NCBI GenBank assembly: GCA_907165275.2
Contig: OU015654.1
Span: 7,333,501-7,397,500 of the forward strand
Direction: 5' to 3'
Source of the DNA: Zygaena filipendulae
Lineage: Eukaryota > Arthropoda > Insecta > Lepidoptera > Zygaenidae
DNA length: 64,000 nt
Shown here: positions 7,207 to 36,442 of the stretch, in pieces
Layout of the letters: each line of letters opens with the position of its first letter
How positions within the stretch are numbered: the stretch's first letter is position 1
Notes under the pieces: model-generated
What the model was told of the DNA's origin: nothing
The model's database searches: none
The model's input: the letters and a program-made list of their open reading frames with translations, nothing else
Program-made: the position numbers and the translations under genes

Positions 7207-7881
7207 TTTAACTCACAATATTTTCATACTACATAAATATATTATACTAAAATAGGTAGTAAGTCATTAGTAAACATCCTTTGTCACTTAATTATTCTTA
7301 ATAATAACTTTTACAATTCCAAATTTAAAAAATTACATACTTTTGTATATGATTCTTAATTTCAACCAGCACAGTAACACTAAATCAAAAATAATATTAT
7401 TAAGTAAATTAAGTAATTTTATAAAGTCCATACATACCAATTATTAATGGTATTAAAATAATATTTCATTAACTAAAACTTTAAAAGCTAATACTAATAT
7501 AATTTGGTGCACCAATAACATAGTTAAATTTTACTCCCGAATTATGTTTAATAGCTTTAAAATTAAGCTATAAAAATTTAAGTTCTACAACAAATACCTA
7601 CTTATTATGTAGAAAAACGGTAAAATGGTTAATGTTAGTTAACAGTTTACTGCAACATTCCGAAAGCTGTATACAAAGCCTTATAATTAAAAAAACTGTG
7701 AAATATCACATCATCGCAAGCAACATAGGTAATAAATATAACTTAGCTCAAGTTGTTAAAATATTAATAAAAATAAATATATTTTAGTGCGTAGTTGGTT
7801 ACCTAACTAGGCTGTAGTTTGTCTAGTTATTTACATCTGCTTGAGTACATCTCTACCTAAATTTAAAGTAATGGTACATAT

Positions 7882-7887
7882 TTTATT
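7882..7887 (-). terminator. Possible poly(A) signal AATAAA, proximal
   Basis: Minus-strand AATAAA, 100 nt beyond the stop codon of the long reading frame (stop ends at 7987) and well beyond the LIM4 stop (9023). Its position fits the 3' end of a transcript carrying the terminal exon. It rests on the hexamer alone. Confidence 0.35.
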
Positions 7888-7986: not shown

Positions 7987-9100
7987 TTATGTTTTGTTGC
8001 TGTGGCAATTTTGTTTAATATACTGATATATGAGATTATACACAATTAACAAGAAACACAATATGGCTGCGTGATAATGCATCGGCATATTTAATACGGC
8101 TCGTAGAACTCCGGGTGCGGGTCCTACTTTTAACATTTTGATGTTATTCTTTCTTTTTCTGTCTATCTGAACTTCCAACAATTTAGTGCTGTCGTCCATA
8201 ATTGTACTATCATTATTTTGGCAAATTTCTAAAGTATTTTTTGTATTGTAATTAAAATTTTCTTTTGTTAATTTTATTTCTTTTTTAACATCTGTCGTTT
8301 CACCCTCTTCCATAAGCTCTTTTTGTGTCGATTTAATACTGATTGTGTCCGTTGATGATGAATTTAAACTCTGTTGTAGGTAACTATCTATCATTGTTAG
8401 TTTTTCAGTTACTTGTTTATTTGCCAGCGGGCTACACGATCTTTTGACCAGATCTACATCCAGTTCTTTTCCGGATACGCCCAACTTACTTGAATCAAAC
8501 AAAGTTTCCTTACATAAGGAACTCACAATTTTATAGCTTTCTAAATCTTCAAAGTTGTCTTCTATGTATTCGATTGGCGGTTTTCCTGTTACTTCCGAAC
8601 TTGATTCGCGAGCAATATGCGACGGTTTGACAAGCCGGGGGACATCTAACTCCTGGGCGATGGGAGTGAACCTAACTTTAATGACGTCCTCGTTGGTTGT
8701 TGTTTCCATTTTAACAATGTTTTCAACAAACTCTTTTCTTTCATTATCCATAATTGAATCCTGTAAAAATGGCGAATCAGTGACATCGCGACGAGTCGAG
8801 CTGTGTACTCGATCGACGGTCACCGTGCTCAGTAACTTGCCGTCTTTACTTCTTATGTCGGAAAACAATCCTCTATCAAAGTGGAGGGGAGTTTCCAACT
8901 TTCTGGTTCTCTGCGGTGAGGACATTGTAATCAACGGTGGGGTGAGGGGAGAGGGTGAAACTGGACGAAATGATTTTGTCGAGTACACAGTATCTGAGTT
9001 ATAAATTATTTGCGCAGGACTTCTAGCGGGCGTGCGTTTTGCAGAAAGGTCTTCCTGCCTTGGCGAAGAAACTCTGTCCCTCGAGGTTCTTTTTGCATAC
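7987..9100 (-). CDS. Zasp52: Alternative-frame terminal Zasp exon: Ser/Pro- and Asp/Glu-rich region with C-terminal membrane segment (putative)
   Basis: The frame is open from the acceptor at 9101 ('gaaatttcag') for 370 codons, read in phase 2 (one base completes the incoming codon). The region is AT-rich, so chance openness over this length is very unlikely. The peptide begins YAKRTSRDRVSSPRQED, has a Ser/Pro stretch (VYSTKSFRPVSPSPLTPP), and continues as a charged, probably disordered region (KEFVENIVKMETTTNEDVIK). It ends with a hydrophobic segment AAILCFLLIVYNLIYQYI about 9 residues before the stop, like a tail anchor. The first 78 nt overlap the LIM4 end in another frame. Joined after either LIM2 first-half exon (both leave AG) it makes an Arg codon and reads straight in. 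It could instead be the last exon of a separate gene sharing the acceptor. Coding status is fairly sure; the splice partner is inferred. Confidence 0.7.
9023..9100 (-). CDS. Zasp52: Zasp exon 14: second half of LIM4 and stop
   Basis: Read in phase 0 after the CFNCT codon of the previous exon it gives VCKKNLEGQSFFAKAGRPFC, then KTHAR and TAG (9025-9023). This closes the second zinc knuckle of LIM4 and matches the conserved Zasp C-terminus. The acceptor is gaaatttcag. The same acceptor in another phase opens the long frame described separately. Confidence 0.92.
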   Translation of the reverse strand, partial: VCKKNLEGQSFFAKAGRPFCKTHAR

Positions 9101-12100
9101 CTGAAATTTCGTAAAAAGTGTTTATAAACGGTTAATATCATATCTAATCCTATGTGTGATGAAAATAAATGTGCATCTTGCTTTTCCAATATCTGTCGCC
9201 ATTATAAATAAAGAAAACAGATCACAATATTAATTTTCCATACATAATAAATCCTCTTATTATAAAAATTAACTATCAGTCGCCAGGCGTCCGCTGACAC
9301 AAGCCCTCTACAGTGAAATAATCCCTCATGAAAATAAAAAAATTATAATTAATGGTACACTATATGAAATATCACAAGCTTACAGACCTTACAGTACAGT
9401 AGGTACCTAATATAAATGCAAAATATTAAAATACAATCAAACAAACCAAAACTGTTGAACTAATTACGTAAATATAATAATACAATAAAATATATAATAA
9501 TTACAGAAAATTTCAAATACCATAAACATAAAATAGCAAATACAAACAAATGCATTTACAGCTTTGTTATCACTAAAAAACCCCATTCTCTGTCGATTTC
9601 CTCGTGAGCCTGCACAGCTTACGTTTTTAATATATTACACATTAGCTGATTTTCTTTGAAACTGTCGTGGTGGCACGTACGACAACTCCGAAGCTTCATC
9701 CCAATCGGATAATTGGAATAAGAATTAAGAACTCAAACGGGACAAACAAAAAACATTCTACATATAGTACAAGTATACAGGCCGTCCCACGGATATGCCA
9801 CGTGGAAGGAAAGTACCTTGAATATTGTAGATGGAACATTTTACTGAAAGAAGACATTATTTGAATTAAAAAAAAAATTTAAACTGCATTCATAGATATT
9901 TAAAAAATTACATGGTTGAACCGAGAATCGACCTCGTTACATGAGAAAAATAATCATACTGTAGCTTTATCCTTATGATGAAGCCTTTCGATCGGTATGA
10001 TGAAGCTGCAGGGTGATTATTTTTCTCATGTAACGGGTTCGATTCCCGGTTCAACCATGTAATTATATATATATCTACGAATGCAGTTTAATTTTTTTTT
10101 TAATTCAAGTAATGTCTTCTTCCAGTAAAACATTCCATCTACAGTATTCAAGGTACCTTCCCTCCATGTAGCATATCCGTGGGACGCCTTGTATACGTAC
10201 CTACATATGTTAAATGGTTGATTGAATTGATATCTTCCTGAACCACGAGAAGAAGTTACAAACTAAAGTTTTTAAGTAAACTGTACACTAATGGAAAAAT
10301 TAACACAAATGTTAAACACTAGTTTTATTATTATCAGTAGCTATAATGCAATGGGACACACAAAAACTACATTTTGTTAATCTATGATGTTGCATATTGT
10401 GTTTAAACTTCAATGTGGTATGTTATAAAAATGACCATTGATTCTGAATTGGAAATGATTGTTATTATTTCGTACCAAAAAATCAATAGAGTACCTATCG
10501 TTTATCTTATCTACATATATCTATATAACATGTGGTAAAATTAGCTGCAAATACTTACAGGGTTAAAAGTATGCACCGATATAAACATGTTCATTTTTTT
10601 TTCAAACAAACTAAATCAATCAAAAATAAAACAACCTGTGAAGGCACTCGCCCTCATCGCTAAATCGCTTTACACACACATCGCTGCACGCCGGTATCTT
10701 AAGTTCAATGACCTCAATCGAGGTCCATCGCTTTCGCTTGCTATGTGCGTGGTGCGTGCCTTATATACGTTTAAGTGAGCTACGTGTATTGTGTACCTTG
10801 TGAATGTAATTACTATAATGGTTTTTTCAATGAATTTATTTTCCTCATGTTCTGAAAAACTACCGAACTTAATACAATTTTTTCGCTTATCCTGCTTGTT
10901 ATAACGTATACTTTCAGCCCTGTAAATATTTGCAGTTAATTTTACCACACGTATAGTGTATACAGGTTGTCCCGTAAATCGACGTCAAGCCAGAACCGGG
11001 ATAGGCTAAGTCATAATTGTTAATAGAAAAACTTGAAAAAATGTTTTAAAAAAATGATCATTTATAAAAATTATAAAAATTTACACCCTGCGACGCGACG
11101 GTTCTTTAACTCCTGTTGCTACAAACCTTAACTTTTTTTAAATTTTCTTCTTATTGTGTAATCCAGAATCCTTAATAGTGTTTCTGAATACTACTGCTTA
11201 AAATTTAAGTTTTTGCCAAATAAGTTTTCAAGATTATTGCTTTCGTCAGTTTCTAATGACTGTCCTTTTTTTTTAAATAGGCATAGCAAAGATTTTTTTA
11301 TTTTTCTGTTAACAGCTGTTATGACTTAGCCTAACATCTGGTTCTGGCTTGACGTCGATTTACGGGACACCTGTATACCGAGCGAGGCATTAGGTGTGAT
11401 AGTGTCATTATTATTTTACACTATAGCTGTAGAATTTCGGAATAAAAAGTACCCTATCACTGTAGCTTCCTATAAGTGAAAGAATTTTCAAAATCGGTTC
11501 AGTAAATCCAGAGATTACCCCTACAATGCCTACAACTCGCAACGTCACAAACTCACAATTCACAAACTTTTTTGTGTTTGTTATTGTAAGGAAAAGAAGA
11601 ATAAATTAAGTTTTGAGTTCCTGCGGGAATTCCCAATCTCCGACACTGACATAGTTCCAACCGAGTGTTCCACGACCCTCACGCATTTTTTTTATTATTA
11701 GTAAAGATTACCTATTATAAATGTTCTTTTTATAATTTAAATTTTTAATATTTTGTAAAGGCCTATTTTATTCCCCATTACCTACTTATGGTCGTCGCCA
11801 TGAGTGGGTAGTTATACTTTTTTCATTCATCTATCCTACTGGTCGTCTCTGCCTTCACTTCCAACTTATGTCATTCCTCACACAAATCAACCATCATTTG
11901 GCGTTTCTCTACTCACATTGAATATGTATCACTTTTATGCTACTCCACCCCCCGTTCCAGTCACATGGCGCATGGATGTCAAGTCTTCAGTCTTCACATA
12001 CCGATATTTGGTATTATGCTTTACATCTCAACATTACACATATTGGTGCCATTTTTATACTCCCTCTAATAAGAGTATAAGGTAAAAAACTAAAAATGTG

Positions 12101-15100
12101 TGTGTAGTTTGTAATATTAATAATAAATCACGTCTTAGACAAACTTATATACATTTCGACTATTTTATGTTTATAAGAAAATATTTCTCATTCTTGTGTG
12201 TATTTGTATCAGTATGTATTTAGTAAGGCTCGCATCATACGCACCGTGCAGTTGAAGCACTGACTGTGGTAGTTATTGTTGAGCGCCTCGACCCACCTGT
12301 CGCCCGCCTCCACGGGGAACCCGCAAGCGAAACATTTGGTCGTAAACAGCTCATTCCAGTCTGGAACATTTTCACACGAGCAATACAAATATAACAATAA
12401 TATCAATCATCTTATCCATTTATCCAAGTTTGTAGGTAAAATTTTAATTACCTGTTTCACAATACGGTAGGCCGTCTTCTAAAAAGAACGGGTTATTACC
12501 GAACAACTTTCCGCAATACACGCAGTTGAAGCATTCCGGATGGAAGTGTTTTCCAATGGCGTTTAAGCAATCCTAAAAACAGGTTATTGTTTGAAATTCA
12601 TTATTTTTAGATTTTTAACAGTATTATTGTACAAAAAGTTTGAAATTAAATACTTACGCCTTTAATTTTAGCGTGACATTTATCGCATGGCGGTGCGATG
12701 TATTGCTCAAAACAGAATTCGCAATAAAGCTGGCCGTTTTCTTCAACGAAACCAATGTCTTGCAGAGGACGTCTGCATGTTGCATTGACGCAAATAAAGT
12801 GCTCCGGGCACCATATCCGTCCCAGGGCTGTTATGAACGGTCCCCTGATACATAAAAAAAAACAAAAATCATGAGAATCGGTCATCATATCACTAATTAT
12901 TATTTAATAATAGGTACTTCATTGCTTGAATATTATTACAGTAATTATACCTACTGTTCTTAATTGGTTTCATTATAAACAAAAATCGTGCGCTTCAAAT
13001 TAAAATCATGCTATTACGCATCAAACTTACTTACGAGAAATTTAAAAAAGCCAAATGCGGGGTTACCTTGTTAGCGCTTTATCACATTTGTGGCATACAA
13101 CAAGCCCGTCAATCATATCAATTGGTGCCACTGTACTCAGTGGTCGTGCTATTATATGGGAGTCTCTTCTGCCGTCGTTATTATTGTTATTTTTCTTTTG
13201 TCTACGTTTAACAACTACTTCAGTATTTTCTTGTTCATCCCCATTGTCGCTAAAGGTGGCAGTGTCATTAATTTTATTTTCTTTACTCAGTATGTTAGTA
13301 TTTGGCTTTTCTTGTTGTTTCATTGAGTATAATGTATTGTCATGCAAGTTGTGAGGGAATTCTTTTTTCCCAACTTGCTCAAATTTTGTCGTAACATTGT
13401 TCTTTTCATACTCTTCGTTTATTGATTTATCCATTGTACATGTTTTTGATGTCGAATTTGTGTCTAAAAGACTATTATTTGATTTAGAATTAACATTGCT
13501 AATATTATGAGAAACGTTCGGTGAATCTGTCTTTTTAAAAATATTTCTCTTCATTAGTGTGTCAGAGTAATTACCATCTAACTTTTGGACGTCACAATTT
13601 GATGTAATGTTCATACCGTTTAAAAAAGTTGTTTTATCTATAGCGTTTGTTTTTTTTAAAGTGTTGGTTAAATTACCGTCAGAATTTTCTTTGTAATCTC
13701 TGTTTCCACTGCCATTATATTGCAATTTAGTATTTAGTGCTATGTCATTGCTTTTGGGGACAGAGATGACAATTGCTTTAGATTCTAAATCAAACTGTTT
13801 TCTTGTATTATTTGTCATATTTTCAACGTTATATGTTGGTACAGGTGGTGGTACGGGAGGAGGTACAGGGACGTTACTGATGTTCAAGTTTTTAGTCGTG
13901 GGATGATTATTGACAATAGTTTCTCTAATTTTATCTCCTATACCTCCAATATTTGCACCTGATTTGTATGTTTTGTCATATGTTTTATTTAAAGAGCGTG
14001 ATAAACTTTTGTCACAATTATTCTCAGCGGAAGTTAAACTCTCCACGCTTAAGGGATGCTTAGTAACTACTGTGTCCTGAATTTTATCTGCCATTGATTG
14101 AATATGGTCAGCAGGTTTTATTTTTCTTTGAATACCAATCTCGTAACCATTTAATGCCATTTTAGCCATTTTTCTTATAAGTCTTTCCTCAGCTGGACTT
14201 TTGTACTCTGCTTTGTGAGGGCTGCTGTACGTAGTCATTTCGTTAGCTGTTAAAGAAATAAAACATTCCAATATAAACACTAATGTTAGAAGCTACTTTT
14301 GTTAAGGATACTGCTGATTAGTTATAAAACGTAAGGACATGGTTTTATGGATTACTTTAATCTAAGGTTCCTAAAATTGTCGGAAATCAATACTAAAACC
14401 AAATTGATCTCTTTATTTCATACATTTTACAAACATGTTTGCTATATACGTGGTCTTTATGTAGTTATTGTAAGAGTGATTTGAAATCCGCCACAACTTT
14501 GTATAATGCATGTATAAAATAAAGAGACTAACTCTTTACGAAAATCTAAATTTTATTCGGTTCAGTACTAATTTGCCAAGTATTTTAGGTTAAACTCAGC
14601 TTAAAGAGTGACAAACAGAATCACTGCGTGAAATTAAATTGATCACTAGTAGTAAATAACACAAAAACAACACAACCACACACATTCAAACTCATGCGTA
14701 AACAAAATCACCACTTCTCTAACAACCATTCACCTAATATTCCCATTACAGGAAGCGCAAAGAGGCACACGAGAGCCCGGCAGCGCAGCCTTGTTCAAAA
14801 TTCCTCTGCCTCGTTTTGGAGCTGATGATACTCCAAAAGTTTTGCCTCGAGCGGCAGCTCCTATTCTGGAACCTGTTGATGGGGTAGGATCACACACTGG
14901 ATCTTGGTTAGCACCAGAAATTGAAGGATTCGGTTCATCACTTTTTAGTTTTTTACAAGCTGTGGCAGTGGCATAACTTTCGTTAGTAGGGTTAATATCT
15001 TGAACATAATATGGATTTTGATGTTGCGAGTTTGTCAAACTCATGAAAGAAGGCGGAAAAACTTGCTTGTTATTACTAGATGGCCTATTAACTGCGTCGT

Positions 15101-18100
15101 TTGATTGATAAAGGTTGCGGGAACTCGATACGCCCTTTCTTATTTCTACTACTTTAGCAGTCTGAGTTTTTTCAAATTCTTCAAATGTTTTTCGAGTTTT
15201 TTGCACTGTTGTATTTCCATATTGCGATACGTCATGCGATTGCATTTCTTTTTGACCATAATTTTGATTGATCATGGAATCTTCTTTAATTTGCCAATCA
15301 CCTTTATTATAAGTTTCGTCTTTGTATATAATATTTAATTGCTTTTCTTCTTTAACAATTGGTTGATCTTGACTCCAGTTTATAATTTCTGTTCTTTTCG
15401 CCTCACTATCACTCACTACTTTATTTTGAATTTCGTGTTCTTTCCTGAGATTCGTTGTAGCCTTGGTTAGTAACGAATGTGCTCCTTGGCGTGTGGGAGT
15501 ACATTCTTTAATACGTGGTGCTTGCGCTTTTAATGGATTTGGGGGTGGACCTTGTGCTGGGGAACGTGATCTTGGTCTAGGTGTAGGTGATCGACTTGTT
15601 TCGGGACTAGACGGTTCATACGTGTAACTTTCTGGTGCCAAGTGTTCTACAGATACTAGGTTCATTTGATAATAAGGTATAATTGGAGCAGGCTTATTAA
15701 TTAAACTCGGTGTGGAAGGTCGACTGCGACAAGGAGAAACTCTTAAACAACTTTCATCAGAAACTGGTTGAAATGTCATAGAAATGGGGGTATCTCTACT
15801 AAGTTGAACAGTTTTTGATTTATGAGTTTCGGCCTGCACTAAATTTGTCGTAGCTGGTTGTGGGGCTGGAGTTACAGATTTTTGTTCGTGTAGTATATCT
15901 TTATGTTTAGATGGTGGGTCTGTTGTTGGAGTGACAGGTCTTTGAAGCACCGCAGGGGCGTTACAAATTTCCGGAGTAATGCCGCGTTGAGACGGTAATA
16001 AATCTATTTTTTTTTGATAAATTGGAATACTGTCAGGTTTGTGTAGGCCTGATTTTGATCGTACTGCCGTTGAAGATAAAGACTCTTTTTGGTCTAATTG
16101 CTCAAAATAACTTTGGGCTGATTTAACTGAAGAGAAACCTTGCATATTACTAGAAATTGAAGTTAGTGTATTATACTGTACTGACGACGTAGATTCTTTC
16201 TTAATAGTGTTTTGTTCTCTGTAACATTTTTCAAATTCAGATTTCATCTCTGTAGTTAATGGGGGAAAGTTGGTAAGTTTGCAAAAATCGTCGGATTGTA
16301 GTGATGGGAATACTTGTTTATTTACGGGCTTAAAAGCAGACAATTCTGAAGACGATTGTAAACTACAACTGTTATTTTGTAAAGTCGAAAATTCACAATG
16401 AACTTGTTCTTTAGCTTGAGATACCGATTGTGTTGCTATTGGTCTGATTATCTCCGATGTGATTGGTACATTTTCAGATATTTCAACGTTATTACGAGAC
16501 TGTTTATCAAAACTTTGCGGCAGAGGACTGTAGGGCCTTTCTGGAGCAGTAGTAACAGCATCTTTAAGAGATGCTCTTTCCAAAATGGGAATATTGACCG
16601 GTGTAAACGGACGTTCAGGCGCTATAGTGAGCGCCGTTATCATAGGAGAAGCCGCCTTCTCGCGTGGAATTTTGGGTTCAATTGTTATTTTAAAGTCTGG
16701 TGGAATATACGGTTTCGTTTCTTCAGGCATAGGGATTGGAATTTCTTTTGTTTCCGGAGGAATATATGGCTTTATAGGAGGTATTGGTGTGATACCACGA
16801 TTTGATGGCTGCGTAAACAGTGGCGATGGTTGTGTTTGTATTCGATTTCTTTGCGGTTCGTTTTTTTTTGTTTCTGTGACATTTTGTACATTTTGATAGA
16901 CGGTAATTTTATCAACAACATTATCTTTGGGTGGTGTTTGAGAATGGGTTGATTGAGAAAGTTGTTTTTCTGATAGTTTAGGCTCTGTGTTTGTAACTAG
17001 ATCTGTCGAATTTGAAACAGAACAAATTTGAGTTTCTATTGATGCATCGTGTTCAAAATATTCTTCTTGGGATAGTTCCGTTTTGACCTGTTCAATTTTT
17101 TTGTTCTTGTCCATATCGATAGCATCAGATAGTTTGTCTGATTTATAAGATATTTCAGTCTCTTGAAGATTATCCAAATTATCGGCAGATTCAATAATTT
17201 TCTTAACAGGCGTTTGTGATTGATAAATCATTGATATTTGACTTTCGGTGGATGCTTTCTCTGAAAAGGATTGAACAGTGCAACTAGTTTCATGTATCTC
17301 TTGCGATTTTTGTTTGTTTTCTATAGCAGATGATTCTATTTTAGTTGATGATTTAGCAGTTGACTTCAAGGCAGAGGCACAAGATACACTTGAGGATACT
17401 TCCGCCATCTTAGATGATCCTTCGGGGAGGTCTATAGAACTATTGTGTGCAATAGCCGTTCGGATCAAAGAGTTTGAGCTTTCGTCTTTTAATGACACTT
17501 CTGCTGTAGAAGTTTTTGGATCAACACCCATGTTAATGACATTAGATTTTGGATTCTCTGTAATTATATCATTCGAACTTTCATCTTCAGGGCGATTTGA
17601 TGGGGGCCACACAATACTCTTAACATTTTGGGCTGTTAGTACATTAACAGATTAAGGTAGGTAGGTCAGGTGGTGGGGGTTATTTGAAGAAAAAATGAAA
17701 AATTAGACTTTTAAAGCAATTATTTAAAGTAGCTTACTTAAATTTCTTGTTTTAGCTATCGGTAAAGGTGCTGGCTATTTTAAGTTGATATAGCTCGATG
17801 ATTGAACAAAATCGTTAGGTAAGAATATGTAATAAATAAAACTTCGATTACAATTTTTTTGCTCTCTGGTATAAGTAACATTTAAAGGTCGGTCCTGGTC
17901 CTTCTGTCAAAATATAAGAGTATATGATATATATTTCAAAATATCTAACTGATTAATGAATACAGCATCTAAAAAACGAAGAATATAGTCACTAAAAAAC
18001 CACAATGAATACAGCCATATCATTAGAAACGATAGAATAGATGAGCCATAAGTAGTGATGAAAACGATAACGTGATTTGCAACGAAATTCTAGTTGATCA

Positions 18101-21100: not shown

Positions 21101-24100
21101 GTGGCCAGCTGCGATACCTAGTATGTAATATGTCTGTTCACTAGGATTAGTCTGTTCAGTAGTGTGGCCTTAACACTAGTGTGGATGTACTTACGGTGGT
21201 ACAGTAACGGGCTCCAGATTGGGTGCCGGCGGGTTCTGGCGCGCGACCAGCTTGGCGTGGATGTCGCAGTACAGCTTTCCGTTGATGTTGTAGTACCCTT
21301 GGTTCTTCAGCGAGGAGCCGCAAGTGGAGCACTTGAAGCACTCCACGTGCAAGTTCTTGTCCTTGATGCGCACGAACACTCCGCTACAATAAACATTATT
21401 TTCATGAAACGTCGATACCAACTTAATTATTTCTTAATTTTTTTTATATCGGAATAACTTGAAAGTACATGAACTAAAATAAATTAAAATTTATCAATAT
21501 ACCTACATAGTTTGTGATCGATAATATTGATACAATTACATACAACTACATAATTATGTACATAATTAAATTTTGACATATTTTGCACAATTATACGTCA
21601 TAATCATGCTCTTTAAGATTCTGTTCGTGCAAACGGTGTTTATAAAATAAATGACTTGTGTAAATGTGGTAAATTATAAATAATATGAAATAGTGAAATA
21701 GTGAAATAATATCATGCTTTACAAGTGCTACATTAATTACTATTTAGGTAGAATTTTGTGTAGAAATTAAGAAAATTACTGAGTATAGATATTAATGATA
21801 GATGATGAACAACGACTACTTACTAGCGTAAATCGTAACACAAATGCTTACAAAAATATACGAATAAAGTCTAATACTATTACGAACACATAAAAATATT
21901 AAATCTAAACAATAGAACTACTGTGCACAGGCCGACACGGTCGCAAACACGTCAAGGCATTCTGGAGGGCGTATCTTACGTAATATAGCGATTACAGTCC
22001 GTGCAATATGGCGTGTCGTTGACGACAGGCAGGGAGTCCTGCGGCGGCAGCGGCATGGCGGGCGCGCCGAGCGCTATACGCCCGTCCGGCAGCACCTGGT
22101 GGCAGCCCACCGGGATGCTGGGCCGATGCGGCGGCTCCGGGGCCAACTGCTGCGGCTCAGGCGCCGGCGCCGGCGTCTGCGTGCCGGTGCTGGCGCGCGC
22201 GGGCGCCGCGCCCGGCAGCGGAGAGCCCACCACGCGCGGCGTGCGCGACCGCGAGCGGTGCGTGCGGTGCAGGCTGCACGGCGTGCCGGCGCGGGCCACG
22301 CTCGCGCGAGAGTAAAAGTGACTCGGCTCTGCCGATCCCCAATACACGGTTATTTCACACAACAATAGAGAGGGAGGGGGGCACGGAACGAGAAGGACGT
22401 GTGCTGTGCGATGATGTAGGTTTATGATGGCAATATTTATCCCTAAAGTGACAATTTTGTGCCGTCATAAATTTTGCCTGTGGTTTTTGCGACCGTTTCG
22501 ACTCACGCTTAGTCGGACGACTTACGTGATGAGTCGTTCACATTCCTCGCAAATGTTTTGCCCCGGAGGCAAGCCTCCCGTATTGTTGACGGGAGCGTCG
22601 GGCCGCGTCACAGGCGCCTGCACGTGGCGAAGGCCGCTCACCGGGGGCGCCGCACCCGGACTGGCTACTTCTACTATGTGCCAATTTGGAGGTTTTTTAT
22701 TAATTTACTACTCTTCCAAAAATGATTTCTATTGAAAAGTAACTAATATAAACAAAATATTATAAGTATACAATTTACGGACAATGTAAAGTGGATAGAA
22801 TAGCAAGCATTATGCATGGTCGGTTTTCCTAGGTGAATGGTAAATATAAATGTGGATGGGTTTTTAGAAGACAGAAACTCAATAAATATTCGAATAGGTA
22901 GCTGTACCTATCTTCAATCGATGTGTGATCGATACGTGCAAATTATTTTGTGAGTACCTACCTATACATATGCATGTAAAGATTATATGGTTTTTTGAAA
23001 TAAATTATGTTTATCCTGAAATTGAAGGAAACTTGTACTGAAATTGAAGAAATCTGAGTTTTTAGTTTTACCTGGCTCCGGATCATTTTGCTCCTCCTGT
23101 AGTACCTTGAAAACAGCACTCTTCTCGGCGTCGTAAGTTTTCTCATTCTTTTTGAAATTAACACTGGAAAACAATCAATATGAGGTTGCTTTAATGTGCA
23201 TTTTCAGTACCAAGGGTATATCCCTTAATTAGTCCATAGATATCTTAAATTAATAAAGAAAAATAGAAGATCAGCTACATGCAAATGCCCGTTGCCCGTA
23301 ACCTCAGCGGAGAAAAAAGAGAAATACACACGTACATTGTTATCCTAGGGGTGAAAGTAACGATCTATTCGATCTATTACGCTCGGGCGCCAAACCCCGT
23401 CTCGGGACTAAATAAGTCTTTCTCCCGAGGATAACACTGCTTTTCATTACGAATGCAAGGAAAGTCAAAATAAAAATAGGAATTAGCTAAAGAAAAAATG
23501 AGTGAATTTTATTTTAATTAATACCTACTTAAACTTTACGTTATTTCAATTTTACATCGCGCTGGCTGTATAGAAAGTTGGAACATGGTTCAATAGAAAT
23601 GTGAAAATAGACCTAGTTGTTTTTAAATAATTTGACAGTTGTCAGTTGAAAGCGATTCTCCCTAGGGCTGAAAAGGGTTACTTTCAACCCGCTTCTCAGG
23701 CAACTTCAGACCTACTTTCCGAGTATGAGTAATGAAAAATAATATTAATGGAATGTATAAAGGACGGAACTAAACTCACCCGAGCACTCCGCCGGCGAGT
23801 ACCTCGGTCTGCGCGGAGAGAGTCTCGGCGATCGTTTTGTCGCTGTACATGTTCACAGGAGTGTTGTATTGCTTGTTCACCACACTCTTTACGGAGTCAT
23901 TGCCGTTCATCTGGAAAATTATAATAATAATATCTGTTAACTTAATGTACTGGAATGTGACGTTCAACGTACCGTATACCATTTGGCTTTGTCGTGACGG
24001 CTGTCCGTCGTTAGTGTGAATTAGGTACACCTAAGTGAGTTAAAAGAGTTGTGAAGCAACAAACTGTCTTCCAGGCTTTTTGGAAGCAGTTCCACTGTCA

Positions 24101-27100
24101 AACAAGGAAAAATTGTGGGCACAAGTTCACGACAACCCGTAAAAAATGGAAACAGTTGTTCAAAGACAAATAAAGAGATAATTCTGCTGTTGTTCAATCC
24201 GATCTAACTGTCCAATTCCAGCTAACCCAACCCTTATTTGGCAATTCTAATGGAGAATCTCCTTGGCCTAATAGCACTAAAACCTCCAAGTTATATATAT
24301 TTATCTACAGGATAAAGCAGTTGAATTGAATTGAAAGAACTTTATTTGACACAACACATGGATAGTTACAACATACATAAATTAAAAAAAAAAAGCATGA
24401 ATGAGGGACTGCTTCCCAACCGCCAAAAGATCACAACTGTACCGGGAGATCGCCAGCGCACCAATATCCCTCCCGCCAGGCGAGCCCCATTCGGCGACTG
24501 AGAAACAGTTGAGTAGGTAGATCGTATACTCACGTATCCAAAAGGTTTGGCGACGTTGTTGTGGCCAGAGCCGAAAGCGCGCGAGGGCTGCGGCGTGGCC
24601 TTCAGCGAAGTGTTTGTGACAGGCGTGGGTGTGCCGAGCAGGGGGCGCGACCCGGGCCGGGGCAGGCTGCCCGTCGCGGTGACCGTTGGCCGCCAGGTGC
24701 CTCCACCACTGGACAATTAATTGCGCTATATGAATCATTGATGCCCAGCCTATAATGCCCCTTAGGTACCAGTTAGGTACTTACATAACATTCATATGAC
24801 ATAATATCTACTTTCCGATTCCAATTTGGGGGTACATGGCTCCACCGGTTTGACGATGATTTTTAAAAATAAGAAAGCAAGACAGCACCCCCTCATACAG
24901 AATTTTCAATCTTCCTCCATATTTCGTCACAATAAATGAACGTCCCCGCAATGTGCAAGATGAGTACACTTAAGTATATCACTGGAGATGAGTAATATTT
25001 TTAAAAGTTATACCTAGATTTATTTATAACTTATAATTAACTGTGCACCGCGGTTTCACCCGCGTAAGTTTCGGAATTCTCGCAGGAACAAAAAATAGTG
25101 TGATTTACTCCTTATAACATCAGCTATTTGCCAGTGAAAGTCTCGTTAAAATTGGTCCAGCCGTTTCAGAGATTATCTGAAACAAACAGACAGACAGAAA
25201 GACAAAAATTTTAAAAATTTATTTTTTTGTCTAAGTCTTACCGTATACATAAGTACACCTACTTTCATATGCATTTAGTAAAAAGCTATTAATTTGGAAT
25301 TACAAACAGACACTTCAATTTGATTTTTGGCTAGATTACGATGGCCTTGAGGGGGGCGTAGTGGTCTCGGATGACTGATGGCACTTTGGGATGTTCTTGA
25401 ATGACCTGGATATCATTTGAGCTGACTGAATTTGTCATGCCACATAATTTTTATCCAGGAGTTCTCACGGGAACTCCGAAATAGACGAGGTTGAAACTGT
25501 GGGAGATCGACTATAGTGTGTGCAATGCGGTACCGTTGCACGGTGAGCTCGAGCGAGCCCCCGGCGGCACGGATGGCGTCCTGCGCCTCCTGGTGCCGCA
25601 GGGCGTATACGTCGGTGTTGTTGACGCGGATGAGCGCGTCGCCGGCCTGCAGGCCCGCCCGCTCCGCGGCACTGCCCCCGTTCACCTGGAACACCACATA
25701 TAATAATCTCTTTATTACAATAGGCTAGTTCAGTTTTTCTTAAAATGGGCGATAACGTCCCCTTGTGAGCGTTGGAGACCTAGAGGGGCGTTAAGGGGTC
25801 CAGATAAAAATGGGGTGCGCTGGCGTGGTTTAGGGGGCGATGGTTGATTTGTAGTTTCATTTACAAGTATTGAATTATGCTTATGCATGTGTATAGGTAC
25901 CAACTTAATTTGAATTCAAAAGGAATTCCTACCTACTACCAACAGACGGATTTCTATTTTCAGAGACTCGTTAAGTATTAATTTTTCTACAGAAAATACA
26001 TGTAGATACTACTACTTAATTGTTTATTAAAGTGATGAATGTTCTATATTTACGACCTCAATTATACTGTGTAATAGCGATGAATCGCGGTTTCACCTGC
26101 GGTAATTTCGGAGTTCCCACGGGAATTTCGGGATAAGAATTAAGAAGTACCCTATGACACTCAGGAACACTGTAGCATTCTAACGGTAAAAGAATTTTCA
26201 AAATCGTTTCAGTGGATCCAGAGATTATCTACAACTTCACAAACTCACAAACTACCTCTATATACATGTAGAAGTAGGTACTTAAAGGGCAGGCGGCTTC
26301 GTCCGCGTGAATTTGAACTCTCGAAATTAAAATAATAATAATGCTTGGACAATCATCATGCAGGCACCTGGTGCTAACTGCTAAACTAAGCGGAGCTTGT
26401 AGTTTAGGCATCGGACGGCTTTTTTTTTTGCAAATTAGGTACCTATACCTACCTACCTATAATAAATAATAAACACCCAGATTCAGGGAAAAGACGAATG
26501 TTCATCATAATATCGTTTACCATGACGTTTGGATTGAACTCGCCTCACCTAGCGTAGCTTCAGCTTCTCTACACCAAACGGGTCTGTTTGTACTTAGTAT
26601 CTCATCACTTCTATGTATAGTTACACTGTTTTCGCTCTCCGTGCTGCGAGTTTTCGATACATGTATAGTTCGTCATTTACGTAGCTGTCAAGTGTCTGCA
26701 TGTCAGTCACTTTAGCGAAAGATCACATTCTTTCCTTCTCAGTTGATTTTAAAGAGGACCTTGAAAATCCTAATTGGGGTTTGTTTTCAGTTAGATGTGA
26801 TTACAGTGATTAGTTTAGTGATTTTAGTTACATGTGATTACTTATTCACAGATAAGTACCTATAGGAATTCGAGAAAAATAAACCCCAATTTCACAGTTG
26901 CATGAGATATGAGTAAATGTATTTGAAATTTGAATAAAAATTATAAAGTAGATAAAATCCCATCAAAAACATAAATGTGAAAGTGGAAGTCAAGTTCAGT
27001 ATTAAGCTTAAGCTTAGTTGTCGACTTCACCGACAAAAGAATTGATATCTAAATAGGTGTCAAGTTCTGTAGCTAATCCTGAAATATATTCAAAGGAGCA

Positions 27101-36100: not shown

Positions 36101-36442
36101 ATACCTATATTTTTTATCGAAAAGTTACATAATCAATTTTTACCACATTGTTGTGGACATTTTTATTACTTGTTATGTCTCGTTTCATAATTAATTAGGT
36201 ACATATTTAACATATTATTACAAGATGTGATTTTCAGCTTTTTATCTAGGAAAATATGCCGTTAACTATACATATAGGTATATAAGAAGGTAGATCAGCT
36301 ACTCAGGTGTTTAAACTAATTTTCATTTAAAACTCACCTTTTGAACGACGAGAGGTGTGCCGAAATCCTTGCCGCCTTGTAGCCGGAAGCCCAGCGGCTG
36401 TTGATCAGACTTGCTTAGTCGCACAGTTATCAACTGTGCCAT
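9023..36442 (-). CDS. Zasp52: PDZ and LIM domain protein Zasp (Zasp52 orthologue), complete coding span, multi-exon
   Basis: Alp/Enigma-family scaffold of muscle Z-discs and integrin attachment sites; by homology the PDZ domain binds alpha-actinin and the LIM domains bind partner proteins. Fourteen exon positions chain in phase: 36338-36442, 25534-25685, 24534-24708, 23780-23910, 23072-23163, then 22526-22673 or 21980-22328, 21195-21383, 20428-20518, 18806-18980, then 14734-17632 or 13067-14246, 12658-12844, 12452-12572, 12245-12360, 9023-9100. The main form is 4,659 nt: 1,552 residues and a stop. Order: PDZ about residues 3-86, ZM motif about 150-176, LIM1 about 260-315, Pro/Ser-rich spacer 421-1375, LIM2-LIM4 about 1376-1552. 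Using 13067-14246 instead gives about 979 residues. Start ATG 36442-36440 (MAQLITVRL) matches the fly start. All introns are GT-AG. Confidence 0.93.
9770..10197. repeat. Long near-palindrome (foldback element), about 205-bp arms
   Basis: The left arm from 'aagtatacaggccgtcccac' (about 9772) matches the reverse complement of the right arm ending 'gtgggacgccttgtatac' through about 205 nt, with roughly one difference in ten. The centre is near 9984. Each arm carries a tRNA T-arm-like word; on the plus strand the right arm reads gggttcgattcccggttcaa followed by cca. Read the other way this resembles the primer-binding site of an LTR retrotransposon. No coding content. Confidence 0.9.
10531..10949. 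mobile_element. TIR element A, copy 1 (about 420 bp)
   Basis: Ends are inverted: left gtggtaaaattagctgcaaa, right reverse complement gtggtaaaattaactgcaaa, with similarity for about 45 bp. A second copy in opposite orientation lies at 57451-58182. There is no open frame of interest, so it is a MITE-like non-autonomous element. Confidence 0.85.
10963..11373. mobile_element. TA-flanked TIR element B, copy 1 (Tc1/mariner-like MITE)
   Basis: Inverted ends 'caggttgtcccgtaaatcga' and 'tcgatttacgggacacctg' (reverse complement), continuing through 'cgtcaagccagaacc', with TA on each side. It pairs with 50757-51093. The interior has paired words such as 'taagtcata' and 'tatgactta', so most of it can fold. 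The superfamily is guessed from the TA flanks. Confidence 0.8.
11405..11600 (-). mobile_element. Lep1-like Helitron fragment next to TIR element B
   Basis: Reads 'ggaataaaaagtaccctatc', 'ctataagtgaaagaattttc' and 'atcggttcagtaaatccaga', the standard inner words of the family, without the hairpin terminus. The same Helitron piece abuts TIR element B at 50553-50750 in the opposite orientation. Confidence 0.8.
12245..12360 (-). CDS. Zasp52: Zasp exon 13: first half of LIM4
   Basis: After the split Asp codon it reads WNELFTTKCFACGFPVEAGD and then RWVEALNNNYHSQCFNCT. The CxxC and HxxC ligands of LIM4's first finger are intact. Acceptor 'atgttccag', donor gtgcgtatg. It leaves phase 0, as the LIM4 end requires. 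Confidence 0.93.
12452..12572 (-). CDS. Zasp52: Zasp exon 12: body of LIM3
   Basis: Reads DCLNAIGKHFHPECFNCVYC, then GKLFGNNPFFLEDGLPYCET. It supplies the HxxC and the second knuckle of LIM3, whose first CxxC (CDKC) ends the preceding exon. Enters phase 0, leaves phase 1. Donor 'gtaatt'. Confidence 0.93.
12658..12844 (-). CDS. Zasp52: Zasp exon 11: rest of LIM2 and first knuckle of LIM3
   Basis: Reads GPFITALGRIWCPEHFICVN, ATCRRPLQDIGFVEENGQLY, then CEFCFEQYIAPPCDKCHAKI and KG. It is very close to the fly protein as I recall it. It enters phase 2, so it can follow either 14734-17632 or 13067-14246, both of which leave AG. Acceptor 'tatgtatcag', donor gtaagta. Confidence 0.95.
13067..14246 (-). 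CDS. Zasp52: Zasp exon 10b: alternative spacer and first knuckle of LIM2
   Basis: 392 codons. Enters phase 1 after 'tttctttaacag' (A plus CT makes Thr: TNEMTTYSSPHKAEYKSP), followed by AEERLIRKMAKMALNGYE, a long Asn/Ser/Thr/Lys-rich low-complexity stretch with PPPVPPPVPTYN, and at the end VVCHKCDKALTR. The last segment supplies the CxxC of a LIM2 first knuckle and leaves AG at the donor gtaaccc. Entry and exit phases equal those of 14734-17632, so the two are interchangeable but cannot be joined in frame with each other. The YSSPHK segment sits apart from the ZM motif, and its function is unknown to me. Confidence 0.85.
14247..14733 (-). other. Spacer between the two alternative LIM2 first-half exons
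   Basis: 487 bp without a recognised exon or repeat. AT-rich. No third CxxC-plus-donor segment was found here. Confidence 0.5.
14734..17632 (-). CDS. Zasp52: Zasp exon 10a: large Pro/Ser/Thr-rich spacer exon and first knuckle of LIM2
   Basis: 965 codons in a single exon. Enters phase 1 after 'tactaacag' (A plus CC makes Thr: TQNVKSIVWPPSNRPEDESS). The middle is disordered, with repeated proline motifs: KPYIPP twice, APERPFTP and APERPYSP, then several R/QRPxTP words. It ends AAARGKTFGVSSAPKRGRGI, LNKAALPGSRVPLCASCNGN and IR. The CASC pair is the first knuckle of LIM2 and runs into GPFITALGR in the next exon, as in fly Zasp52. Leaves AG at donor gtgaatgg. In muscle isoforms such a spacer sets the distance between the PDZ/LIM1 part and the LIM tail. 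Short plus-strand frames inside it are shadows. Confidence 0.93.
17633..18805 (-). other. Intron 9 of Zasp
   Basis: Contains a dispersed repeat from about 18170 to 18490 beginning 'taggttttgcacgcgacttc', with 'aaaatgatggacttccatac' and 'ccaaatttcagcgaaatccg', a type common in moth genomes. A related start is near 26288. No exon seen. Confidence 0.5.
18806..18980 (-). CDS. Zasp52: Zasp exon 9: linker with Pro-Ala repeat
   Basis: 58 codons: PSSNLSGPKPFGSSLGSAYS, PSLSPRSAPMSPARPVTAPA, then PAPAPAPAPL and LAPTSYAP. Enters phase 0 after 'atatttgcag', leaves phase 1 at gtaagc. The alternating Pro-Ala run is encoded by a GC-rich microsatellite (plus strand about 18838-18873) whose length probably varies between individuals. 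Confidence 0.85.
19199..19316. mobile_element. TIR element D, half copy
   Basis: Matches one end of the elements at 40770-41030 and 61736-61995: 'ctgacgtcacgcgacatttc', 'aaatgaaaaaaatacgtgtt', ending 'acaagacggact'. The other terminus is absent. Confidence 0.6.
19508..19742. mobile_element. TIR element C, copy 1, with AAGT target duplication
   Basis: Ends ggacatagataagcaatag and, inverted, ggacgcagataagcaataac. AAGT is present on both sides. 235 bp, non-coding. The opposite-orientation copy at 30177-30411 is flanked by ATAT on both sides, which supports a 4-bp target duplication. Confidence 0.88.
20428..20518 (-). CDS. Zasp52: Zasp exon 8: short linker
   Basis: 30 codons after a split Pro: GGRIPTNTYSTPLPPIATNN, YTNGSSSLFS. 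Enters phase 2 after 'cgtttcttctag', leaves phase 0 at gtaagt. No domain. It is placed by phase and by the Ser/Pro/Asn composition typical of the region between LIM1 and the spacer. Confidence 0.8.
20710..20900 (-). mobile_element. Diverged Lep1-like Helitron fragment
   Basis: Starts 'actagcagtccctcgcggtt' (reverse complement of a CTAGT end with hairpin words), then aattcccgcggggattcacg. The remainder differs from the usual family, so this is an older copy or a subfamily. Confidence 0.6.
20977..21169. mobile_element. 193-bp TIR element with TTA target duplications (PIF/Harbinger-like MITE)
   Basis: Ends ggccacactac and, inverted, gtagtgtggcc, with TTA directly outside both (20974-20976 and 21170-21172). 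The 3-bp TWA-type duplication is characteristic of PIF/Harbinger. It sits 23 bases beyond the donor of the LIM1 exon at 21195. Confidence 0.82.
21195..21383 (-). CDS. Zasp52: Zasp exon 7: main body of LIM1
   Basis: Reads GVFVRIKDKNLHVECFKCST, CGSSLKNQGYYNINGKLYCD and IHAKLVARQNPPAPNLEPVT. It carries HxxC, CxxC and CxxH of LIM1 and is almost identical to the fly sequence as I recall it. It enters phase 2, so it accepts either upstream LIM1 first-half exon (22526-22673 or 21980-22328, both ending AC). Donor gtaagtac. Confidence 0.95.
21980..22328 (-). CDS. Zasp52: Zasp exon 6b: alternative linker and first knuckle of LIM1
   Basis: 116 codons. Enters phase 1 after 'gggatcggcag' (G plus AG makes Glu: EPSHFYSRASVARAGTPCSL). 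It continues with an RS-like stretch (HRTHRSRSRTP) and an Ala/Pro-rich region (QTPAPAPEPQQLAPEPPHRP), and ends PYCTDCNRYIT. The CTDC supplies a LIM1 first knuckle. Leaves AC at gtaagat, the same phases as exon 6a. GC-rich compared with its surroundings. Including 6a and 6b together would break the frame. Confidence 0.85.
22526..22673 (-). CDS. Zasp52: Zasp exon 6a: linker and first knuckle of LIM1
   Basis: Reads EVASPGAAPPVSGLRHVQAP, VTRPDAPVNNTGGLPPGQNI and CEECERLIT. The CEEC and the GGLPPGQNIC lead-in match fly Zasp52 as I recall it. Enters phase 1, leaves AC at gtaagt. The acceptor area reads tag-tag-aag in succession, so starts at 22673, 22670 and 22667 all keep frame. Confidence 0.9.
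23072..23163 (-). CDS. Zasp52: Zasp exon 5
   Basis: 30 codons after a split Gly: VNFKKNEKTYDAEKSAVFKV, LQEEQNDPEP. It follows the ZM-motif exon exactly as in fly Zasp52 (GGVLGVNFKKNEK). Enters phase 2, leaves phase 1. Donor 'gtaaaa'. Confidence 0.93.
23331..23735 (+). repeat. Dispersed element E, copy 1 (about 400 bp)
   Basis: Begins 'gttatcctaggggtgaaagt', passes through 'gcgccaaaccccgtctcggg', 'tttttcattacgaatgcaag'-type words, 'ttttacatcgcgctggctgt' and 'cagttgtcagttgaaagcga', and ends 'tttccgagtatgagtaatga'. Further copies lie at 54189-54783 (same strand) and 38021-38540 (opposite). No protein is encoded. Confidence 0.8.
23780..23910 (-). CDS. Zasp52: Zasp exon 4: ZM motif
   Basis: Reads MNGNDSVKSVVNKQYNTPVN, MYSDKTIAETLSAQTEVLAG, GVL. 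VVNKQYNTPVxMYSD is the Zasp-like (ZM) motif that in this family helps bind the alpha-actinin rod. Enters phase 0 after 'aattttccag', leaves GG (phase 2) at gtgagttt. Confidence 0.95.
24534..24708 (-). CDS. Zasp52: Zasp exon 3: linker after PDZ
   Basis: 58 codons: GGGTWRPTVTATGSLPRPGS, RPLLGTPTPVTNTSLKATPQ, PSRAFGSGHNNVAKPFGY. The G-STWRP and NNxAxPF landmarks are shared with fly Zasp52. Enters phase 2 after 'aattgtccag', leaves phase 0 at gtgagt. Confidence 0.93.
25040..25215 (-). mobile_element. Lep1-like Helitron fragment
   Basis: Reads gcaccgcggtttcacccgcg, then words of a subfamily with 'tccttataacatcagctatt' and 'attggtccagccgtttcaga'. Internal and 5' parts are divergent from the main group. 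Confidence 0.6.
25534..25685 (-). CDS. Zasp52: Zasp exon 2: second half of the PDZ domain
   Basis: Reads VNGGSAAERAGLQAGDALIR, VNNTDVYALRHQEAQDAIRA and AGGSLELTVQ plus split Arg. This is the alpha-2 to beta-6 part of an Enigma-type PDZ (AGLQxGD, HxxAQDxI). Enters phase 0 after 'ggtgttccag', leaves CG (phase 2) at gtaccg. Confidence 0.95.
26080..26275 (-). mobile_element. Lep1-like Helitron fragment
   Basis: Reads 'aatcgcggtttcacctgcgg', 'ttcggagttcccacgggaat', 'agaagtaccctatgacactc', 'acaacttcacaaactcacaa'. It lacks the CTAGT end. Confidence 0.7.
28290..28912 (+). pseudogene. Broken Jockey-like non-LTR reverse transcriptase
   Basis: The peptide pieces in order are YTDFSEAFDRVPYSLLVAKL, AYGFTGNILRWIESYL, then in the next frame SGVPQGSG, then FADDLKIS (the catalytic YxDD-type motif, near 28576), then IRDLGVILDNKLF near 28790-28830. 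The order matches RT palm motifs of Jockey-type LINEs. At least two frameshifts and lost bases separate the blocks, so it is inactive. The 3' side ends near a poly(A)-like 'aataaataaaataa' stretch at about 29027. Confidence 0.85.
30177..30411. mobile_element. TIR element C, copy 2, with ATAT target duplication
   Basis: Reverse complement of 19508-19742 through almost its full length, with the same ggac(a/g)(t/c)agataagcaata ends and ATAT on both sides. Confidence 0.88.
31047..31710 (+). repeat. Interspersed repeat of the 'aaccgacttccaaaaaggaggagg' family, internally tandem
   Basis: Starts 'ttaaccgacttccaaaaagg' and 'ttcaccgattactcaaagac'. The block containing 'gtttgaaagggtttactccc', 'aaattataggcacccctata' and 'gaactgatgatgaagaccac' recurs at about 31420-31690, so this copy holds at least one and a half units. 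Confidence 0.75.
31901..32326. repeat. Near-perfect foldback element, about 170-bp arms
   Basis: Left arm 31901-32070 and right arm 32155-32326 are reverse complements with only about one indel and a few changes (for example left tttgtgctaccactaatcgg, right ccgattagtggtagcacaaa). The loop is about 85 bp with 'ccaccagctcttcgtgagca'. Such low arm divergence points to a young insertion. A damaged copy lies at 4945-5390. No open frame. Confidence 0.92.
32868..32930. repeat. Fragment of the 'ggccaagtgcgagtcgg' interspersed repeat
   Basis: Reads 'tttgtgcgcgagtccgattc' and 'gcacttggccggattttcct', a widespread insect repeat type. A longer copy in the opposite orientation is at 36599-36760. Confidence 0.65.
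34775..36095. mobile_element. Cluster of Lep1-like Helitron 3' ends and partial copies
   Basis: Five pieces: 34785-34862 (plus, ends gcacagctagt), 34930-35052 (plus, ends gcacagctagt), 35064-35285 (minus, from actagttgtgcc to 'tttataatatttgtaagga'), about 35735-35898 (plus, ends cacagctagt), and about 35905-36085 (plus). The hairpin words CCGCGGGTGAAACCGCGG are visible at several ends. The cluster sits just upstream (lower coordinates) of the first coding exon. Confidence 0.8.
36338..36442 (-). CDS. Zasp52: Zasp exon 1 (first coding exon): start codon and first half of the PDZ domain
   Basis: 35 codons: MAQLITVRLSKSDQQPLGFR, LQGGKDFGTPLVVQK. It contains the GF-type carboxylate-binding loop (PLGF) and GGxDF, as in Alp/Enigma PDZ domains. 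The ATG directly follows a possible acceptor 'cattgttggtag', suggesting that the 5'UTR lies in a separate upstream exon. Donor gtgagtt, phase 0. Confidence 0.95.

What the first reader, a model, noticed from the sequence alone, without database searches (positions are those of the whole stretch)
7987..9100. Dual-frame terminal exon: LIM4 end in one frame, a 370-codon tail-anchored extension in another
Seen: one acceptor (9101) serves two open frames. In phase 0 it completes LIM4 and stops after 25 codons (9023). In phase 2 it stays open to 7987 and ends with AAILCFLLIVYNLIYQYI close to the C-terminus. The first 78 nt would be translated in both frames. Phase arithmetic: 14734-17632 and 13067-14246 both leave AG, so skipping the three LIM2-4 exons (12658-12844, 12452-12572, 12245-12360) lands exactly in the long frame. 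The inferred product is a Zasp with PDZ, ZM and LIM1 but, instead of LIM2-4, a disordered region and a membrane tail. That could tether Z-disc or attachment-site scaffolds to sarcoplasmic reticulum or another membrane. I know of no such isoform described for Zasp52.
Basis: partly seen in the sequence, partly recalled or inferred. Interest (0 to 1): 0.9.

Follow-up and report, generated by a model that had tools for sequence, protein, structure and literature searches.

The report
Membrane-tailed muscle scaffold isoform in moths
In moths and butterflies the muscle Z-disc scaffold gene Zasp appears to make, by changing reading frame at a splice site inside its last LIM domain, a second version of the protein that ends in a predicted membrane anchor.

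Summary
One terminal exon (9100-7987, minus strand) carries the last 25 codons of LIM4 in one frame and an open 370-codon frame in another. The long frame is coding: three searches gave 85 proteins with all or part of it. The 28 that bear a name come from 20 species, all Lepidoptera. The terminal helix motif is present in 81 of 86 sequences, window included.

Six of 18 gene models with both LIM domains and tail, from five species, enter the frame through an alternative 5' splice site inside the LIM4 exon. The window has that donor (12297|12296, CAG|GTGGGT): strongest U1 pairing of 299 exonic GTs, -10.9 kcal/mol against -4.5 for the exon's canonical donor. Its use drops 52 nt, destroys LIM4, keeps PDZ, ZM and LIM1-3, and adds a mostly disordered linker and a C-terminal helix.

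The other 12 models use other joins. No RNA read across the junction was seen; membrane and function are inferred. Predicted isoforms exist in databases; my searches found no paper.

The parts
7987..9100 (-). Terminal exon read in two frames
   Evidence: Acceptor and both frames translated; Diatraea and Plodia tails map from 9102 to 7993
9023..9100 (-). End of LIM4 in phase 0 with stop; shared with the long frame
7987..9099 (-). Long frame, 370 codons plus TAA: alternative C-terminus
   Evidence: 85 proteins with all or part of it
8800..8919 (-). Most conserved block, residues 61-100 (SPQRTRKLETPLHF...VTVDRVHS)
   Evidence: Mean frequency of the commonest residue 0.94 over 45 sequences
8017..8070 (-). 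Predicted membrane helix, residues 344-361, followed by a 9-residue basic tail
   Evidence: KD mean 1.97; AlphaFold helix 340-365, pLDDT about 96 in 341-360
12245..12360 (-). LIM4a exon, canonical form
   Evidence: spliced to the terminal exon in 7 unnamed contigs and one Iphiclides model
12297..12360 (-). LIM4a exon, short form: alternative 5' splice site GACAG|GTGGGTC after 12297; removes 52 nt
   Evidence: the homologous joint GDR|CAKR in 6 gene models
12452..12572 (-). LIM3 exon (kept)
12658..12844 (-). LIM2 exon (kept)
13067..14246 (-). Exon B, alternative start of LIM2
14734..17632 (-). Exon A, alternative start of LIM2
23780..23910 (-). ZM-motif exon, by similarity to Plodia and Diatraea Zasp
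   Evidence: tblastn 93-98% identity; donor
25534..25688 (-). Second PDZ exon (limits approximate)
   Evidence: PDZ Pfam hit E=8.9e-13 in the surrounding frame; tblastn
36338..36442 (-). First coding exon, MAQLITVRL... (limits approximate)
   Evidence: tblastn 95% identity; donor
7882..7887 (-). AATAAA polyadenylation-like signal downstream
   Evidence: further ones start at 7552 (ATTAAA) and 7206

Best explanation
The long frame is the C-terminus of an alternative splice form of the lepidopteran Zasp52 orthologue. An alternative 5' splice site inside the LIM4a exon (12297|12296) is joined to the ordinary last acceptor (9101|9100). This removes 52 nt, cuts LIM4 before its third and fourth zinc ligands, shifts the frame, bypasses the LIM4 stop and reads on to TAA at 7987. 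The protein keeps PDZ, ZM and LIM1-3 and gains a mostly disordered linker with conserved blocks, one C-terminal helix and a short basic end. I infer that it inserts after translation as a tail-anchored protein and ties Zasp complexes to an organelle membrane (mitochondrial outer membrane or ER/sarcoplasmic reticulum). Shown: the open frame, its conservation, the donor, the phase, the junction in six gene models, the predicted helix. Inferred: use of the junction in this species, membrane insertion, tethering.
For: Conservation of the frame in 85 proteins, 28 named and lepidopteran; the strongest conserved block lies outside the LIM4 overlap (0.94 at residues 61-100). Junction GDR|CAKR in 6 of 18 models with LIM domains and tail, from Diatraea, Hyposmocoma, Colias, Plodia (2) and Spodoptera exigua. 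Homologous donor in the window, in phase, U1 pairing -10.9 kcal/mol, strongest of 299 exonic GTs, canonical donor -4.5. In 8 of 8 sequences where the LIM4a exon shows in the other frame, selected without regard to it, the letters imply an Arg codon ending GG before TGG, which keeps GGT. Terminal helix motif in 81 of 86, confident helix in the model. Plodia and Diatraea models are colinear with the window.
Against: No RNA read or peptide across the junction was seen in any species; the models are predictions. Of the 18 models 12 use other joins (4 full LIM4a plus an intron in the terminal exon, 6 irregular at one Choristoneura locus, 1 Iphiclides, 1 Eumeta), and Colias has both kinds. One of the six (P0083) lacks the terminal helix in its model. 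AlphaFold mean pLDDT is 55. Membrane insertion and tethering are untested.
Confidence: 0.78

Rival explanations
1. One reading: LIM2, LIM3 and LIM4a exons are skipped, joining exon A or B (or a LIM1 exon) straight to the terminal exon, giving PDZ-ZM-LIM1-tail.
For: Phases fit for exons A and B.
Against: 0 of 85 proteins show it; the fit is a 1-in-3 event. My searches would have allowed lengths of about 200-2280 aa, so such a form was not excluded by size.
Confidence: 0.05
2. LIM4 is kept almost whole and a short intron inside the terminal exon removes the LIM4 stop, entering the long frame further down.
For: 4 of 18 models: Chilo (2), Colias, Leptosia.
Against: The window has no GT at the matching place (TTCTGCAAAACG), only GC; the conserved residues 36-60 would be spliced out.
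Confidence: 0.06
3. The frame is a separate short protein, made from its own promoter or by internal initiation on the ordinary mRNA (for example from the ATG 37 codons upstream of the exon in the LIM4a alternate frame).
For: Helicoverpa and Papilio models start at MYNSDTVYS; the other frame of LIM4a is open for 48 codons back with one ATG; 7 unnamed contigs show ordinary mRNA carrying the frame.
Against: Met before YNSD in 16 of 39 listed sequences (one of the 39 is a stray match), Ile or other in the rest, window included; P0043 lacks the LIM4a ATG (onward; seen); the internal donor explains entry without it.
Confidence: 0.08
4. A chance open frame in the 3' UTR of ordinary Zasp mRNA.
For: It does lie in what is the 3' UTR of the LIM4 form.
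Against: Protein conservation in 20 named species; 0 of 2000 shuffles open.
Confidence: 0.01

Closest known systems
Drosophila Zasp52 growing and blocking isoforms (ALP/Enigma family)
   Same: Same gene family and domain order PDZ-ZM-LIM; alternative splice forms that change the number of LIM domains, including alternative LIM1 and LIM2 first halves (PMC6910826, abstract and passages).
   Different: The fly forms described there vary LIM number; the words transmembrane and Lepidoptera do not occur in its text. Here LIM4 is replaced by a membrane tail in another frame.
Predicted Zasp isoforms of Plodia (X2, X7) and Hyposmocoma (X4), and models of Diatraea, Colias, Spodoptera exigua
   Same: Same exon structure, same internal-donor joint and tail.
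   Different: Automatic predictions; I found no paper that describes them.
Tail-anchored membrane proteins (general class)
   Same: A single hydrophobic helix close to the C-terminus with a short basic end.
   Different: No sequence family shared; insertion untested.
Small ankyrin 1 - obscurin link of sarcomere to sarcoplasmic reticulum in vertebrates (recalled; related abstracts listed)
   Same: Works as a membrane-to-sarcomere tether, the role proposed here.
   Different: Unrelated proteins; an analogy of function only, and the function here is inferred.

Membership tests
ALP/Enigma (Zasp52) gene | PDZ domain | tested here: met
   Pfam PDZ E=8.9e-13 at 25416-25724
ALP/Enigma (Zasp52) gene | ZM motif | tested here: met
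   By similarity: window 23779-23910 matches Plodia and Diatraea Zasp at 93-98%; those proteins carry PF15936
ALP/Enigma (Zasp52) gene | LIM domains | tested here: met
   Pfam LIM E=7.3e-12 for LIM1; LIM2-4 by translation and similarity
Alternative 5' splice site | GT donor at the joint, reading frame kept | tested here: met
   CAG|GTGGGT, 52 nt removed, frame open
Alternative 5' splice site | Transcript reads across the joint | not testable with these tools
   Only gene models were reachable
Tail-anchored protein | One hydrophobic helix near the C-terminus, short end after it | tested here: met
   Residues 344-361 of 370; 3-15 residues after it in 81 sequences; helix 340-365
Tail-anchored protein | No other hydrophobic stretch or signal peptide | tested here: inconclusive
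   None in the long frame; the rest of Zasp was not scanned
Tail-anchored protein | Inserted in a membrane | not testable with these tools
   Needs an experiment
KASH protein | Ending PPPX (recalled) | tested here: not met
   Window ends HSNKT; relatives end mostly HGNKK-like
Zasp blocking isoform | None or one LIM domain (PMC6910826) | tested here: not met
   The form keeps LIM1-3 in the internal-donor models

The most novel reading that the evidence does not exclude
Ditrysian Lepidoptera evolved an order-specific, membrane-anchored Zasp: the sequence downstream of the LIM4 stop became a second coding frame reached through a frame-switching splice donor inside LIM4. The form physically ties Z-discs or attachment sites to mitochondria or sarcoplasmic reticulum, a new kind of sarcomere-organelle tether whose dose is set by the choice of one 5' splice site.
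Probability: 0.4. Interest if true: 0.82.

Novelty: new variant of a known kind. Interest (0 to 1): 0.63.

Why it matters
Zasp proteins set Z-disc and myofibril size through ZM-LIM binding (PMC6910826, abstract and passages). A conserved form that loses LIM4 and gains a membrane anchor would let one gene make both the Z-disc scaffold and a link to a membrane. It is also a clear case of a long second coding frame lying in what looks like 3' UTR; databases hold it in part as separate or oddly named proteins (Helicoverpa LOC126055982, Papilio 'Zonadhesin'). How myofibrils are held to organelles would become directly testable in a moth.

Tried and rejected
Known families: no Pfam hit for the window frame; over 45 members only stray hits, best E=0.007; two NCBIfam hits at E 0.12 and 0.16 far below cut-off; no PDB sequence match; no PDB fold match at E<=0.001, with a low-confidence model, so uninformative. 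Skip of LIM2-4: not seen, 0 of 85. Chance frame: rejected. KASH: rejected on its ending. dN/dS: not done; I had only proteins of relatives and did not scan the contig collections for moth DNA. Rfam: nothing in the window. I first took the internal donor for the strongest of all Zasp donors; one search shows the ZM donor is equal (-11.0), so I claim only the strongest of 299 exonic GTs. The count of 8 of 8 conserved GGT first came from a pattern that contained it; I repeated it with a selection free of it, same result.

Full report
What is there. The gene on the minus strand is the Zasp52 orthologue of what is, by its relatives, a lepidopteran. Full-length models from Diatraea and Plodia map onto the window exon by exon, from MAQLITVRL (36442) through PDZ, ZM, LIM1, the two long alternative exons A (14734-17632) and B (13067-14246), LIM2-4 and the terminal exon. 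The terminal exon 9100-7987 reads in two frames: 25 codons finishing LIM4 with a stop at 9025-9023, and, one base on, 370 codons to TAA at 7989-7987.

Is the long frame real. Three protein searches gave 85 proteins carrying all or part of it. Twenty-eight bear names, from 20 species: Diatraea, Chilo, Plodia, Hyposmocoma, Choristoneura, Colias, Leptosia, Pieris, two Papilio, Iphiclides, Parnassius, two Danaus, Euphydryas, Helicoverpa, Spodoptera, Arctia, Plutella, Eumeta. I know all these genera as Lepidoptera; for two I looked it up, and Eumeta (Tineoidea) and Plutella (Yponomeutoidea) spread the frame across Ditrysia. The other 57 are unnamed. In the profile search the weakest of 68 hits had E=1.8e-63, with nothing further to E=10. 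Identity to the window is 41-56% for the 44 relatives that I aligned out of 85. Mean frequency of the commonest residue by block: 26 codons shared with LIM4, 0.80; residues 36-60, 0.80; 61-100, 0.94; 101-150, 0.76; 251-325, 0.40; 326-361, 0.83. The strongest block lies outside the LIM4 overlap and cannot be a by-product of LIM4. Shuffles and codon usage agree, though one antisense frame also scores weakly positive.

How it is reached. No protein joins exon A, exon B or a LIM1 exon directly to the terminal exon (0 of 85). Eighteen models hold both LIM domains and tail. Six of them, from five species, read ...TTKCFACGFPVEAGDR|CAKR or CARK...: an alternative 5' splice site within the LIM4a exon. 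The window has GACAG|GTGGGTC there: the last exon base is 12297, 52 nt are dropped (1 mod 3), and the long frame follows in phase. By U1 pairing this donor scores -10.9 kcal/mol against -4.5 for the canonical LIM4a donor, and none of 170 GTs in exons A and B is as strong. Over 299 exonic GTs it is the strongest, the next -8.3; among ordinary donors of the gene the ZM exon's is equal, -11.0, and the first PDZ exon's is -10.2. In all 8 sequences where the LIM4a exon appears in the other frame, the letters ATGG imply that the Arg codon ends in GG before TGG, so the GGT of the donor is kept.

Results against this. Of the 18 models, 12 use other joins: 4 keep the full LIM4a exon and splice out a short piece of the terminal exon (Chilo twice, Colias, Leptosia), 6 are irregular models of one Choristoneura locus, and one each come from Iphiclides and Eumeta. 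Colias has both main kinds. The intron in the terminal exon would need a GT that the window lacks. One of the six supporting models, from Spodoptera exigua, ends without the helix. Seven unnamed contigs of 1,688-2,349 bases show the full LIM4a exon joined to the terminal exon, that is, ordinary LIM4 mRNA carrying the long frame; the window has a 3144-nt intron there. I take the label lgn to mean assembled sequencing reads; the tool does not say so. No read or peptide across the alternative junction was seen.

The product. LIM4 is cut at GDR, before the His and Cys of NNYHSQC, its third and fourth zinc ligands by the recalled LIM consensus, so LIM4 is lost while PDZ, ZM and LIM1-3 stay. AlphaFold (mean pLDDT 55, pTM 0.22) gives mostly disorder, a weak hairpin (89-108 and 130-146), a helix at 229-249 and a confident helix at 340-365. 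The best 18-residue stretch is AAILCFLLIVYNLIYQYI, 9 residues from the end, KD mean 1.97. Over the 81 sequences with the motif the KD mean is 1.96 (1.46-2.23), 3-15 residues follow, and their mean net charge is +2.5. Five gene models with deviant 3' ends lack the motif. By recalled rules of thumb a short, moderately hydrophobic helix with a basic end suits the mitochondrial outer membrane at least as well as ER/SR; this was not tested.

Function. In flies, ZM-LIM binding builds Z-discs and forms with two or more LIM domains make them grow (PMC6910826, abstract and passages). A form with LIM1-3 and a membrane anchor could join the Zasp network and fix it to an organelle; this is inference. Fly Zasp52 splicing is controlled by Bru1 and Rbfox1 by fibre type (PMC8742874, passages), so a regulated donor choice is plausible. 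A butterfly proteome study reports one Zasp phosphopeptide (PMC12737199, passages); similar sequence in four relatives lies upstream of LIM2, not in this tail.

Print. Searches in an open-access library listed no paper on a membrane-tailed Zasp. The listings were capped, subscription papers are not covered, and I opened passages of four papers only (PMC6910826, PMC9751615, PMC8742874, PMC12737199). The ALP/Enigma review PMC9751615 does not hold the word transmembrane. Predicted isoforms are in databases.

Verdict. Observation confirmed, interpretation partly supported: a conserved alternative C-terminus of Zasp, most likely reached by a frame-switching internal donor in LIM4, with a predicted membrane anchor.

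Noticed in passing
22674-22526 and 22329-21980 (minus strand): Two alternative first halves of LIM1 (ending ERLIT and RYIT), and exons A and B as two alternative first halves of LIM2; they parallel LIM1A/1B and LIM2A/2B of the fly.
   Followed up: partly
9773-11369: Last intron holds several inverted repeats, among them nested arms of 110 and 103 nt (88-89%) and a perfect 30-nt pair; they look like mobile-element remnants.
   Followed up: no
28236-28544 (+): Weak reverse-transcriptase match (PF00078, E=7e-05, below the curated cut-off) in a Zasp intron region.
   Followed up: no
P0025, P0084, P0085 (Choristoneura): Models that run from the Zasp tail into another protein (PF01214, recalled as casein kinase II regulatory subunit): a neighbouring gene or a fused model.
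   Followed up: no
P0015, P0023, P0024 (two of them Papilio) and P0011, P0020: The middle of the tail carries expanding short repeats in some species (such as RPITPLNVPMTLFD, VFRAPSEGL, EPIKRSPSPLANL).
   Followed up: no
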